Shown here: piece by piece, positions 1,496-60,246 of the stretch
Layout: each line of letters begins with the position of its first letter
How positions within the stretch are numbered: position 1 is the first letter of the stretch
Assembly (NCBI GenBank): GCA_023957375.1
Contig: JAMLHB010000001.1
Coordinates: forward strand, 1,590,245 to 1,654,244
Direction of reading: 5' to 3'
Source: Flavobacteriales bacterium
GTDB lineage: Bacteria > Bacteroidota > Bacteroidia > Flavobacteriales_F > PHOS-HE28
Length of the DNA stretch: 64,000 bases
Program-made: the position numbers and the translations under genes
Notes under the pieces: generated by a model
Databases searched by the model: none
What the model saw: only the letters and a program-made list of their open reading frames with translations
Told to the model about the DNA's origin: nothing

Positions 1496-2104
1496 CTATC
1501 GAGTTGCGACAACCAGCAGAGCTAAGGCAGTAAATCCGATGGCGATTCCACGACCGCCCCCTTTTGAACGAACACGGTAGCCTGATGCATCCAGTATCGT
1601 GTAACTATTGGGCCCTCGCATCCTCACCCAGCCAACACAATCATTTCTGCTGTTCACTATCATGAAGAGGTTCCCGCTATGGTATCTTAACGTTCCGATC
1701 TGCTCCCCCGATTGCCCGGTTATACGATACGAATGGTGCCTCTCAAGTTTGCGGAAATTGGTATTGTACAGGGTCGCTGTACCGGGAGAATAGTAACGGC
1801 CATTTCGATGGTAATAGTTGTTCAGATATGTGTTAGCGTTTCCGGTTGCCACCTTTCCGGTATAAGGGTTCGTGCTCCCCGGATAGCTCCAGTTATTGTA
1901 GGGGTTGCCATCCGGTGACGACCGGTAGTGAGGCCGCACATAAGTGCCATCTTTCCGATAGTAGCCTTTGACATGGACCTGAGCGGCGAGGTCTGCCGTC
2001 CACGCCAAAGCGATGAAGGACACCACAAGCAGTCGTTTCAAGCTTGAAATGGACAAGCATTGGCCGATCAGTGACACCAATGGTTCGAGCGTGTTCGTGA
2101 ACAT
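1496..2104 (-). CDS. Small secreted protein with a GYYRKDGTYV motif
   Basis: Exported protein of about 200 residues. A signal peptide core (LLVVSFIALAWTADLAAQ) precedes a mature N-terminus VHVKGYYRKDGTYVRPH. That motif, with the following Asn/Tyr/Pro-rich stretch, recurs in many uncharacterised secreted bacterial proteins. The middle (residues about 100-170) has a beta-rich pattern (YRITGQSGEQIGTLRYHSG), and the C-terminus holds a Gly-rich turn and a hydrophobic tail (GIAIGFTALALLVVATR) that could be membrane-inserted. The start is uncertain: the ATG at 2104 gives a long signal peptide, while a TTG at 2041 (LKRLLVV) would give a more usual one. The function is unknown. Confidence 0.6.
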   Translation of the reverse strand: MFTNTLEPLVSLIGQCLSISSLKRLLVVSFIALAWTADLAAQVHVKGYYRKDGTYVRPHYRSSPDGNPYNNWSYPGSTNPYTGKVATGNANTYLNNYYHRNGRYYSPGTATLYNTNFRKLERHHSYRITGQSGEQIGTLRYHSGNLFMIVNSRNDCVGWVRMRGPNSYTILDASGYRVRSKGGGRGIAIGFTALALLVVATR

Positions 2105-2196
2105 GGCTTTCGTTGATTGCCCCGCAAAGGACAGGGTCGCCACTGCAACCAGCTTGCAGTGGTTAAATTTTTAGTCATGCTTCGTTCCTTTGCGAC

Positions 2197-2955
2197 ATGG
2201 CCCAGCACCAGCACGCGCTTGTTCGTTATGTTGCGTTGGACCGCTGCCTCTCAAGGCTTCGGCTCACCAAGGACGAACTCATTGCTCGATGCTCCGAGGC
2301 CGTGAGCCGAGTGACCGGTGACGATCGCCACATTTCGGAGAAGACCTTTTACAATGACATCCGTGCGCTACGCGAAGGGATCGTGTTGGGCCGTGAGGCA
2401 CCGATCGTTTGTACTGAAGGTCACTACCAGTATGACGAACATGGGTTCTCGCTTTTCCATGCAGGAACGCAGGACAAGGAAATGAAGGCGCTACAGGATC
2501 GCCTTGAAGCATTGGAGATCCGGGCTTGGCGGGTGTTGGAGCGGATCGAAGCACATGGGGTGGATAAACAGCTCGTCGCCGAGGTACGGGCACTCCTATC
2601 CGGCGGAGGCACATGCTCATGGGCGTATGTCGCCGACAAGGAGGAGGAGGCCGAACGAAAGGTCCAGCGAGCAAAGGACGCTGCCTTGTATAAATTGATC
2701 AAGGAGAAGGAAGCAGCGAGAGCGAAGGCTGAAAGATCGCGCCCGGCTTCGAGTGGATCACATGGTGGCACAGTCATGTTCCAACTTGCACCTATAGTTC
2801 CAGACCCACCGGAAAATCTGACTGCCGATGAACTCGCAAGGTGGTTCCTTGACGACATGTCCGCGTGGGGGTACCATTTCCCACAAATCGGATGGCTGAG
2901 ACAAAAGCTATTCAGATGGAAGGTCCGAAGGGCAGCAAGGATTGCACTGAAATAG
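2197..2955 (+). CDS. WYL-type HTH regulator lacking a WYL domain, 252 aa
   Basis: Probable DNA-binding protein. Residues 1-95 have the layout of the helix-turn-helix region at the front of Bacteroidota WYL regulators: an ALVRYVALDRCLS start, a middle helix LTKDELIARCSEAV, the recognition segment ISEKTFYNDIRALRE, then a wing ending PIVCTEGHYQY. The sensory WYL domain that should follow is absent. Instead there is a coiled coil (about 100-135), a long charged helix rich in Lys and Glu (about 160-200) and a C-terminal domain with aromatic residues and a basic end. It is the only plus-strand gene of the left-hand accessory region. A box resembling a -7 element (TTCCTTTG, 2185-2192) precedes the ATG. 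Confidence 0.6.
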   Translation: MAQHQHALVRYVALDRCLSRLRLTKDELIARCSEAVSRVTGDDRHISEKTFYNDIRALREGIVLGREAPIVCTEGHYQYDEHGFSLFHAGTQDKEMKALQDRLEALEIRAWRVLERIEAHGVDKQLVAEVRALLSGGGTCSWAYVADKEEEAERKVQRAKDAALYKLIKEKEAARAKAERSRPASSGSHGGTVMFQLAPIVPDPPENLTADELARWFLDDMSAWGYHFPQIGWLRQKLFRWKVRRAARIALK

Positions 2956-2997
2956 TCGTGTATTTCTTGAAATTCGTGTACTTGGAAAAGGATGGGT

Positions 2998-3145
2998 GCC
3001 CGCGTGAGGGATGGGAGCGGTAGCCCGGCATAGTGATGTGCGAGTAGCGCACGGAGCGAGGAGGCTGCGAGGAACGAGCAGACCCCGCAGTCCGATGCGA
3101 TGCCGCACAGCGCAAGGCGGCTAAAGCGGACAGCCCGGCCCCGCC
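2998..3145. repeat. Dispersed structured intergenic element
   Basis: This GC-rich non-coding stretch has conserved-looking ends, GGGATGGGAGCGGTAGCCCGG near 3008-3028 and CTAAAGCGGACAGCCCGGCCCC near 3121-3142. Its core has several short complementary segments (GCGAGTAGCGC, GAGGCTGCGAGGAACGAGCAG). From memory it resembles an intergenic element found in many copies in Bacteroidota genomes and possibly the Flavo-1 RNA family. Only one copy is in this window, so the repeat status is inference. It sits at the boundary between the accessory genes and carB. The following 3146-3197 also carries a short CTACGCTCGGAGTGACCG sequence of repeat type. Confidence 0.4.
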
Positions 3146-3197
3146 TGCAATTGAGACGGGGACACGCCCGCTTCTTCGCTACGCTCGGAGTGACCGT

Positions 3198-6008
<2,811 letters not shown>

Positions 6009-41895: not shown

Positions 41896-41931
41896 GCAGA
41901 GGCCCCGGAGACCCCATCCCGGGGCCTCTGC
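41896..41931. terminator. Hairpin between convergent genes
   Basis: A 13-bp stem, GCAGAGGCCCCGG (41896-41908) with CCGGGGCCTCTGC (41919-41931), lies in the 72 bases between the beta-helix gene and the acetyltransferase gene. There is no U tract, so it may act as a bidirectional, weaker terminator. Confidence 0.6.
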
Positions 41932-58643: not shown

Positions 58644-58765
58644 GTGCCGTGCTTTGGGCGGCAAGTTACCGGGTCGGCCGGGAAAGGAGGGCCATGCGCC
58701 GGGAAACGCCCGGCAGTCGCCGCCCGTATGGCACGCGGATAGTCGGTGGTGCGCTTGCGGTGTTT

Positions 58766-58818
58766 GTAAATTTCGCCACGGCATGGCGATATTTATACCA
58801 CGTCGTGGCGAATTTTAC
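58766..58818. repeat. Left 53-bp direct repeat flanking the AAA/DUF4143 gene
   Basis: The sequence consists of a half-site GTAAATTTCGCCACG (58766-58780), an imperfect inverted half-site centred on ATGGCGATATTTATAC, and the inverted half-site CGTGGCGAATTTTAC (58804-58818). It aligns without gaps with 60082-60134, with 9 mismatches in 53 bases. It ends 26 bases before the ATPase ATG. No other copy was found by eye in this window. Confidence 0.85.
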
Positions 58819-58844
58819 AATACCTGCATACCTTCGCGGCACTG

Positions 58845-60077
58845 ATGAAAGCACGCAACATCGCCACGGCCATTGCCACGGCCTTGAAGGACACGCCCGT
58901 GGTACTCGTGAACGGAGCCCGGCAGACCGGAAAGACCACCTTGGTGAAAGGGCTGGCGCGCAAGCGCAAGGCCACCTATTTCACCCTGGACGACCACGGC
59001 ACACTGGATGCCGCGCTGAACGACCCCGCAGGCTTCGTGGCCTCGCTGGGGGACTTCGCCGTGGTGGATGAAGTGCAGAACGCCCCGAACATCTTCCGGG
59101 CCATCAAGGCTTCGGTGGACCGCGACCGGCGGCCCGGGCGCTTCCTGCTCACCGGCAGCGCCAACGTGCTGGCCCTGCCGCGCATGGGCGACTCCCTGGC
59201 CGGGCGCATGGAGATCATCACCCTGCACCCCTTCGCACAGGATGAACTGGCCGGCCGCAGGAGCACCTTCATCGACGCCCTGTACAAGGCCCGCCTGCCG
59301 ATGGCGTACACCGGCACAGCGGACCGCGCGGCCCTGGCCCGCCGCGCATTTGCGGGGGGCTATCCGGAGGTCCGCACCCGCAAGGCCCCCGCACGCCGGG
59401 CTGCCTGGTACAAAGCCTACATCACCACCATCCTGCAAAAGGACGTGCGCGACATCAGCAACATCGCGGACCTCACCAGCCTGCCCAAGCTCCTGGCCCA
59501 GCTCGCCCTGCGCAGCGGTAATTTGCTCAACCTCGCCGACGTGGCCCGCGACCTGGACGTGCCCCACTCCACCCTGCGCCGCTACATGGCCCTGCTGGAA
59601 ACCACCTTCCTGCTCACGCCGTTGCGCCCTTGGGCGAACAAACGGGCCAAACGCCTGGTCAAGGCCCCGAAGGTCCACTTGGCTGACAGCGGCTTCGCCA
59701 CCTGGCTGTGCGGGATCAACTCGCCGAACGAACTGGTGAAGAACCCCATGTGGGGCCACCTGCTGGAGACCTTCGTGACCGGCGAACTGCGCAAACTGGC
59801 CACGTGGTCCAAAGCCACCGTGGAAACCTTCCACTTCCGCATGGACACCGGGCGGGAAGTGGACCTTGTGCTGGAAGATGCCCAAGGCCGCATCATCGGC
59901 ATCGAGGTGAAGGCATCCGCCAGCGTGGACCACCGCGACCTGGCCGGCCTGATGGAGCTGCGCGCAGCCGCAGGACCGAAGTGGGTGCGCGGCTTGGTAC
60001 TGCACGCCGGGCCCGGGATCACGCCCTTCAGCCGCGACCTGAACGCCGTTCCGATCAGCGCAGTGTGGGACTGGTAG
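58845..60077 (+). CDS. Solitary AAA-type ATPase with DUF4143 and nuclease-like C-terminus
   Basis: ATP-binding protein of 410 residues. Walker A is NGARQTGKTT (lysine 30), Walker B FAVVDEVQ (aspartate 75, glutamate 76) and a sensor RFLLTGSAN near residue 105. The C-terminal DUF4143 domain begins with a winged-helix-like region (LLNLADVARDLDVPHSTLRRYMALLE) and ends in a PD-(D/E)XK-like set, E308 in LLETFV, D340 in REVDLVLE and E354/K356 in IGIEVKASA. The start is the ATG at 58845, 8 bases after a TACCTTCG box. It is alone, between two 53-bp direct repeats. The family has no settled function; binding and possibly cutting DNA is inferred from the motifs. Confidence 0.88.
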   Translation: MKARNIATAIATALKDTPVVLVNGARQTGKTTLVKGLARKRKATYFTLDDHGTLDAALNDPAGFVASLGDFAVVDEVQNAPNIFRAIKASVDRDRRPGRFLLTGSANVLALPRMGDSLAGRMEIITLHPFAQDELAGRRSTFIDALYKARLPMAYTGTADRAALARRAFAGGYPEVRTRKAPARRAAWYKAYITTILQKDVRDISNIADLTSLPKLLAQLALRSGNLLNLADVARDLDVPHSTLRRYMALLETTFLLTPLRPWANKRAKRLVKAPKVHLADSGFATWLCGINSPNELVKNPMWGHLLETFVTGELRKLATWSKATVETFHFRMDTGREVDLVLEDAQGRIIGIEVKASASVDHRDLAGLMELRAAAGPKWVRGLVLHAGPGITPFSRDLNAVPISAVWDW

Positions 60078-60081
60078 GCTT

Positions 60082-60134
60082 GTAAAATTCGCCACGTCGT
60101 GGCGAATTTTACACCACCACGTGGCGATTTTTAC
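60082..60134. repeat. Right 53-bp direct repeat flanking the AAA/DUF4143 gene
   Basis: The element starts 4 bases after the ATPase stop. It contains a perfect 31-base palindrome, GTAAAATTCGCCACG-T-CGTGGCGAATTTTAC (60082-60112), followed by a third half-site CGTGGCGATTTTTAC (60120-60134). Orientation and spacing are the same as in the left copy. The rest of the gap up to 60246 has no gene. Confidence 0.9.
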
Positions 60135-60246
60135 GATCTGCACGAAGTGATTTTCGGGGGGGAGGCGCCAGGAGGCCCAACCCGCCCATCCTTTCGCGAC
60201 ATGCTTCCGCGGCCGTAATCCCGTTCCATGCACATCTTTAGCCCCG

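What the first reader, a model, noticed from the sequence alone, without database searches (positions are those of the whole stretch)
58766..60134. Single AAA/DUF4143 ATPase gene enclosed by 53-bp direct repeats
The sequence shows two ungapped 53-base repeats in the same orientation, 44 of 53 positions identical, ending 26 bases before the ATG and starting 4 bases after the stop. Each has three GTAAAATTCGCCACG-type half-sites, and the right copy holds a perfect 31-base palindrome. The encoded protein has an intact Walker A/B pair and a PD-(D/E)XK-like triad (E308, D340, E354/K356). The arrangement looks like a minimal unit: either a mobile one-gene element whose protein recognises the repeats, or an autoregulated gene with operators at both ends. 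I know DUF4143 ATPases as widespread and functionally unassigned; a repeat-bounded form would be a useful handle.
Basis: partly seen in the sequence, partly recalled or inferred. Interest (0 to 1): 0.78.

Follow-up and report, generated by a model that had tools for sequence, protein, structure and literature searches.

The report
Self-operator-bracketed mobile ATPase-nuclease gene
A single bacterial gene for an ATPase fused to a nuclease, from a very common but untested family of suspected anti-virus genes, carries its own private DNA switch in front of it and a second copy behind it, and relatives move between genome sites together with such switches, which makes the regulation and spread of this family directly testable.

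Summary
In detail: 58-bp direct repeats (83% identical) bracket one intact AAA_14-DUF4143 gene, and nothing else in the genome carries the half-site with 0-1 mismatches. The protein is PDC-S01, a very abundant, untested candidate phage-defence gene (ATPase plus PD-(D/E)XK nuclease). The eleven closest homologues carry matching repeats; left and right copies co-vary within a locus. The left repeat is best read as the operator: its last half-site lies 24-27 bp from a Bacteroidota -7 promoter box while the distance to ATG varies. This is family-wide: 71% of 103 divergent DUF4143 genes have a strong palindrome or 22/32-bp-spaced repeats just upstream, against 6.5% of other ORFs; about 14% repeat the motif after the stop. 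Operator plus gene moves as a unit: relatives at unrelated sites share only this stretch, empty sites exist, and one genome keeps a single repeat where the gene is gone. Many relatives sit between 28-206-bp duplications of host sequence ('insertion with long target duplication', known for restriction genes), but some Fic genes do too, so self-transposition is not shown.

The parts
58764..58821 (.). left repeat: operator array (half-sites + 58766-58780, - 58782-58796 degenerate, - 58804-58818)
58829..58836 (+). Bacteroidota-type -7 promoter box TACCTTCG, 25 bp from the start of the last left half-site (a spacing of 24-27 bp is kept in most of the clade)
   Evidence: promoter consensus from general knowledge
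58845..60077 (+). PDC-S01 / DUF4143 protein, 410 aa
58845..59459 (+). AAA+ (STAND-like) ATPase domain, residues about 1-205
59472..59630 (+). winged helix-turn-helix, residues about 210-262 (LADVARDLDVPHSTLRRYMALLETTFLL)
   Evidence: DNA binding inferred
59742..60059 (+). PD-(D/E)XK nuclease domain, residues about 300-405; E308, E338, D340, E354, K356
60080..60137 (.). right repeat: second copy of the operator (+ 60082-60096, - 60098-60112, - 60120-60134)
60081..60113 (.). perfect 33-bp palindrome, strongest in the window
58764..60137 (+). unit missing in relatives with an empty nif3/lpxK site (about 1374 bp)

Best explanation
The window holds a self-contained, self-regulated, horizontally moving one-gene cassette of the PDC-S01 (DUF4143) family. 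The encoded ATPase-wHTH-nuclease most likely binds the half-site GTAAAATTCGCCACG (inferred: wHTH, motif private to this gene, motif co-varying with the gene). Bound at the left array, whose last half-site overlaps the -33 region of the gene's own promoter, it keeps its own level low; ATP state or a phage trigger would change that binding and/or switch on the nuclease (inferred). The right array probably acts as an auxiliary operator or roadblock/insulator so that the cassette keeps its own control wherever it lands; its direct-repeat relation to the left copy also lets the gene be lost by recombination, leaving one repeat. Shown here: architecture, family-wide linkage, phasing to the promoter box, movement as a unit, empty sites and a solo scar. 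Inferred: protein-DNA binding, repression, defence function. Movement most likely uses host recombination or transformation with long target duplication, as described for restriction-modification genes, not a transposition reaction of the protein itself.
For: Half-site private to this locus in the genome. All 11 closest homologues (62-97% identity) carry the motif in front, and all whose contig continues carry it behind. Arms of left and right copies agree 77% within a locus, 58% between loci, 0 of 20000 permutations. A -7 box TAnnTTYG lies 24-27 bp from the start of the last left half-site in 10 of 12 members while the box-to-ATG distance runs from 12 to 68 nt. Family-wide: 103 genes below 70% identity, 70.9% with palindrome or spaced repeats within 130 nt upstream, versus 6.5% of 309 other ORFs and 0% of coding windows; periods cluster at 22 and 32-33 bp. 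Direct (not inverted) arrays in Rhizobiaceae argue for DNA sites rather than RNA hairpins; no Rfam match. Unit movement: only operator+gene shared between unrelated sites, 90% (L030/L031), 95% (L245/L256), 92.6% (L246/L257), 96.5% (L243/L255). Empty sites for the window unit in G005, G028, G012. Solo repeat at the second site in G007. ATPase and nuclease residues conserved; C-terminal fold matches PD-(D/E)XK defence nucleases (Can2 Z 9.2, rmsd 4.2 over 130; McrC Z 8.9, rmsd 3.4 over 121).
Against: No binding or expression data. About 29% of divergent members show no clear upstream motif at the thresholds used. In STAND proteins the winged helix often does not bind DNA (general knowledge). Two members of the clade (G022, G017) appear to have frameshifted genes yet keep repeats, so repeats persist without an intact protein. 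The right copy has no measured role; most members of the family lack it.
Confidence: 0.75

Rival explanations
1. Self-mobilising one-gene element: the protein recognises the repeats as its ends and uses its ATPase and PD-(D/E)XK nuclease to insert itself, making long target duplications.
For: Sharp unit borders in several independent pairs; host-sequence duplications of 28-206 bp flank 21 of 133 DUF4143 genes, against 1 of about 266 ordinary ORFs; two cases with empty sites where both copies are equally distant from the empty allele and much closer to each other, so the duplication arose at insertion.
Against: 2 of 29 Fic genes in the same genus also have such duplications (Fisher p = 0.11 against genus DUF4143). 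No genome with several near-identical copies. Repeats at both ends only in some subfamilies; no common terminal sequence. Duplication length is variable.
Confidence: 0.12
2. Operator in front only: the left repeat is an ordinary regulatory site and the right copy is a by-product (for example a duplication of the operator) with no function.
For: Right copies are missing in most of the family; in direct-repeat form they allow deletion (G007 scar).
Against: Right copies are kept within about 15 nt of the stop over 62-97% protein identity, co-varying with the left copies, and are found independently in other subfamilies (L026, L111, L210, L198/L121).
Confidence: 0.25
3. RNA structures: the palindromes work as hairpins in the transcript (terminator, stability element).
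For: Perfect palindrome next to the stop codon; a hairpin is possible.
Against: The same kind of half-sites occurs as direct arrays in relatives; no U-tract terminator form; the left copy lies upstream of the promoter box; no Rfam match.
Confidence: 0.07

Closest known systems
PDC-S01 (phage defence candidate, single gene; PADLOC PDLC04790)
   Same: Profile match E 5.5e-159 over the whole protein; ATPase fused to PD-(D/E)XK as described for PDC-S01 (PMC12988326).
   Different: Published accounts found here do not mention self-operators, right-hand copies or unit borders; defence activity was unvalidated there and untested here.
Insertion with long target duplication (Nobusato et al. 2000, as cited in PMC1643837), described for restriction-modification genes in Helicobacter pylori
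   Same: A gene sits between long direct duplications of host sequence, with single-copy empty alleles in relatives.
   Different: Here in Bacteroidota around single DUF4143 genes; the window copy itself shows no remaining duplication of host sequence.
Autoregulated defence operons with direct-repeat operators, e.g. RptR (PMC12255303)
   Same: Small arrays of repeats at the promoter of a defence gene.
   Different: RptR is a separate small repressor; here the presumed binder is the effector itself.
Archaeal ATPases PAB2304 (2QEN) and SSO1545 (2FNA)
   Same: AAA+ and winged-helix arrangement: Z 14.9 (rmsd 4.9 over 251) and Z 13.6 (rmsd 4.4 over 249).
   Different: The solved chains align to residues 1-290 only; our protein has an added nuclease domain.

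Membership tests
DUF4143 / PDC-S01 | Profile matches above cut-off, full length | tested here: met
   PF13635 144 bits (cut-off 28.1), PF13173 86.6 bits (27); PADLOC PDC-S01 527 bits
DUF4143 / PDC-S01 | Intact Walker motifs and PD-(D/E)XK active site | tested here: met
DUF4143 / PDC-S01 | Protects against phage | not testable with these tools
   no experiment; most PDCs described as unvalidated in PMC12988326
Insertion sequence / DNA transposon | Known transposase or recombinase domain | tested here: not met
   only AAA_14 and DUF4143 found
Insertion sequence / DNA transposon | Several near-identical copies per genome | tested here: not met
   paralogues at most 61% identical in 18 genomes, one tandem pair of 97% in G097
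Insertion sequence / DNA transposon | Short target duplication of fixed length | tested here: not met
   duplications where present vary from 28 to 206 bp; none seen at the window locus
REP/RAYT elements | Y1 (HUH) transposase beside dispersed palindromes | tested here: not met
   no such domain in the gene; palindrome not dispersed in the genome
Insertion with long target duplication | Long direct duplication of host DNA around the insert, single copy in the empty allele | tested here: inconclusive
   met for relatives L220 and L211; not seen for the window copy itself, which may be too old
STAND NTPases | AAA+ core followed by winged helix in STAND order | tested here: inconclusive
   best structural matches 2QEN, 2FNA, then plant NLRs, CED-4, Avs5
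Autoregulatory operator | Site at own promoter bound by own product | tested here: inconclusive
   position and linkage shown; binding not tested

The most novel reading that the evidence does not exclude
PDC-S01/DUF4143 genes are a new class of self-mobilising one-gene elements: an AAA+ ATPase-nuclease that binds its private repeats and inserts with long target duplications, so that its 'embedding' in defence loci partly reflects insertion rather than a defence role.
Probability: 0.12. Interest if true: 0.92.

Novelty: new variant of a known kind. Interest (0 to 1): 0.62.

Why it matters
PDC-S01 is reported as the fourth most common defence candidate across prokaryotes and is unvalidated (PMC12988326). 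A private operator that travels with each gene gives a direct handle: the ligand DNA of each protein can be read from its own flank, binding and autoregulation can be tested for many family members at once, and unit borders and empty sites show how such single-gene systems spread.

Tried and rejected
RNA family search of the region: no match. PDB sequence search: no relative. Viral fold library: only generic AAA+ matches. Phage collection: 8 distant hits in unannotated gut records, no close homologue. Exact target borders at the window site from the empty alleles: intergenic DNA too diverged to place the junction to the base. Insertion polymorphism on plasmids: flanks are mosaic, so unit borders but no single clean empty allele. 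Joined-flank search for L193 gave no contiguous empty site. Reading the host duplications as proof of self-transposition: dropped after the Fic control. Other 1-mismatch palindromes in the genus (G028, G016, G007-C17): inside unrelated sequence, taken as chance. A search centred on a proteobacterial genome was not accepted, so the proteobacterial motif rests on a dozen plasmid loci.

Full report
OBSERVATION. The repeats are real. Each copy has three half-sites in the order + / 1 bp / - / second - 22 bp further on. The right copy contains a perfect 33-bp palindrome (60081-60113), the strongest in the window. In the whole genome, every match to the half-site with at most one mismatch is in these two repeats.

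PROTEIN. The 410-aa product matches AAA_14 and DUF4143 and the PADLOC model PDC-S01 with E 5.5e-159. PDC-S01 was named by a guilt-by-embedding approach (Payne et al. 2024, a preprint not held here; cited in PMC12988326). That paper reports it as the fourth most common candidate defence across prokaryotes, ATPase plus PD-(D/E)XK, with experimental validation pending for most such candidates. AlphaFold2 (pLDDT 89.4, pTM 0.89) gives AAA+, winged helix and a C-terminal domain. Residues 1-290 align best with the archaeal ATPases 2QEN (Z 14.9, rmsd 4.9 over 251) and 2FNA (Z 13.6, rmsd 4.4 over 249), then with STAND proteins. The C-terminal domain predicted alone (pLDDT 89.8) matches PD-(D/E)XK nucleases, top Can2 (Z 9.2) and McrC (Z 8.9). 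In 103 sequences under 70% identity K30, D75, E76, E338 and D340 are invariant, E308 98%, E354 and K356 93%.

CLOSE CLADE. Eleven homologues of 62-97% identity, all in MAGs labelled Flavobacteriales, Bacteroidetes or Bacteroidota (most are the same contigs as the same-genus genomes), carry the motif on both sides, except L042, whose contig ends before the right side. The core CGCCAC-nnn-GTGGCG is kept while the arms change, and arms agree within a locus (77%) more than between loci (58%), never reached in 20000 permutations. Across 45 genomes of the genus, palindromes of this type come almost only in pairs about 1310-1370 bp apart, that is, around the gene.

TWO SITES, EMPTY SITES, A SCAR. Site A (nif3 | lpxK) is occupied in the window genome, G031, G032, G019, G002, G022 and probably G017; the last two seem to have frameshifted genes, as their matches fall in two frames. 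G005, G028 and G012 have nif3 next to lpxK with 222, 82 and 226 bp between them and no repeat; in G005 the length is close to the window's two flanks without the unit (120 + 110 bp). Site B lies at dapA: L045, L046, L049, L050, L056 share dapA on the right, and L046, L048, L049, L056 share an exonuclease gene on the left. G007 has exonuclease, one palindrome, dapA and no gene: the single-repeat state that recombination between the two repeats would leave. The gene of the window is 91.6% identical in DNA to that of G032, while nif3 and lpxK are 76%; against G019 the order is reversed (gene 80%, lpxK 88%), so the coding part has been exchanged horizontally at the same site.

OPERATOR. In the clade a -7 box TAnnTTYG lies 24-27 bp from the start of the last left half-site (10 of 12; L044 and L056 deviate) although the ATG is 12-68 nt beyond the start of the box. 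The same idea holds for the family: of 103 DUF4143 genes, nearly all from Bacteroidota, 55% have a palindrome of net score 10 or more pairs, 29% a spaced direct repeat, 71% either, within 130 nt upstream, against 6.5% of 309 other ORFs and 0% of coding windows. Sequences differ between subfamilies; periods cluster at 22 and 32-33 bp, two and three helical turns. Plasmid relatives at 45-48% identity have upstream direct arrays with a 22-bp period, for example TTTAAATCAGACG/TTTAAATTAGACG (L245), with 22 the best shift overall (mean match 0.37-0.39 against 0.25). Direct arrays cannot form the hairpin, so DNA sites are the better reading. Of 30 loci in which upstream sequence recurs after the stop (0 in permuted pairs), 19 rows are copies of the operator and 11 are duplications of host sequence or a tandem gene (my sorting of the rows).

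MOVEMENT. Pairs at unrelated sites share only the unit: L030/L031, 90% from 10 nt before the left palindrome to the right palindrome; L245/L256, 95% from -196 to +20; L246/L257, 92.6% from -79 to +25; L243/L255, 96.5% from -83 to +39. Around many DUF4143 genes host sequence is directly duplicated just outside these borders: 34 of 146 loci show a left/right match where 0.28 is expected from cross pairs; without operator copies it is 21 of 133, against about 1 of 266 other ORFs once DUF4143 loci listed under other ids are removed from the control. Two cases have empty alleles. L220 (G031) sits at the end of an SRPBCC-like gene with a 63-bp duplication; G005, G032 and the window genome itself are empty and contiguous. 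L211 (G002) sits after a luxE-like gene with a 70-bp duplication; G019, G022 and G000 are empty. The two copies are 96-100% alike but 76-90% like the empty alleles, so the duplication was made in the host lineage. This matches 'insertion with long target duplication' described for restriction-modification genes (Nobusato et al. 2000, via PMC1643837). Control: 2 of 29 Fic genes in the genus also show it, so it is not shown to be a property of the DUF4143 protein.

MECHANISM. Best reading: a compact cassette whose product binds its own half-sites. Left array: repression of its own promoter. Right array: auxiliary operator or insulator, which would keep the control of the cassette independent of its surroundings; this step is inference. 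ATPase and nuclease are kept under strong constraint and are presumably used against invading DNA. Rivals and refuting results are listed in their sections.

JUDGEMENT. It is a visible case of a family-wide rule (a private operator with each gene) that I did not find described in the papers available here; the library holds only part of the literature and no preprints, so absence is not proof of novelty.

Noticed in passing
G000:C1:95003-95977 (L121, L154): Another DUF4143 gene of the window's genome is bracketed by palindromes of a different sequence (TTTGGGAATCCTAAAGTTGGACTTTAGGATTCCCAAA) on both sides.
   Followed up: yes
L168 (G000:C2:897278-898231): Third DUF4143 gene of the genome lies between a 38-bp duplication of the 3' end of an ABC-ATPase gene.
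   Followed up: partly
L321 (G005:C17, Fic gene): A Fic-domain gene also has a 156-bp, 86.5% direct duplication of host sequence on its two sides; long target duplication may be a general mark of single accessory genes here.
   Followed up: partly
L244 (R. beringeri pRlX3, 1962-3231): DUF4143 gene annotated as two CDS (AAA family ATPase and DUF4143 protein), so probably frameshifted.
   Followed up: no
G097:C14 (L136, L181): Two DUF4143 genes 97% identical in tandem, one shortened: the only near-identical pair within a genome.
   Followed up: no
L226 and L216, upstream of the gene: Upstream DNA seems to hold a stub of another DUF4143 gene start (AVLGPRQVGKTTLAEQ), as if units replace or insert into each other.
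   Followed up: no
L201 (G023), -576 to +60: Three copies of the same gene 3' end are separated by inserts, the DUF4143 unit being one; looks like serial insertion at one gene end.
   Followed up: no
window 41896-41931: Second strongest palindrome of the window, GCAGAGGCCCCGG...CCGGGGCCTCTGC; possibly a terminator.
   Followed up: no
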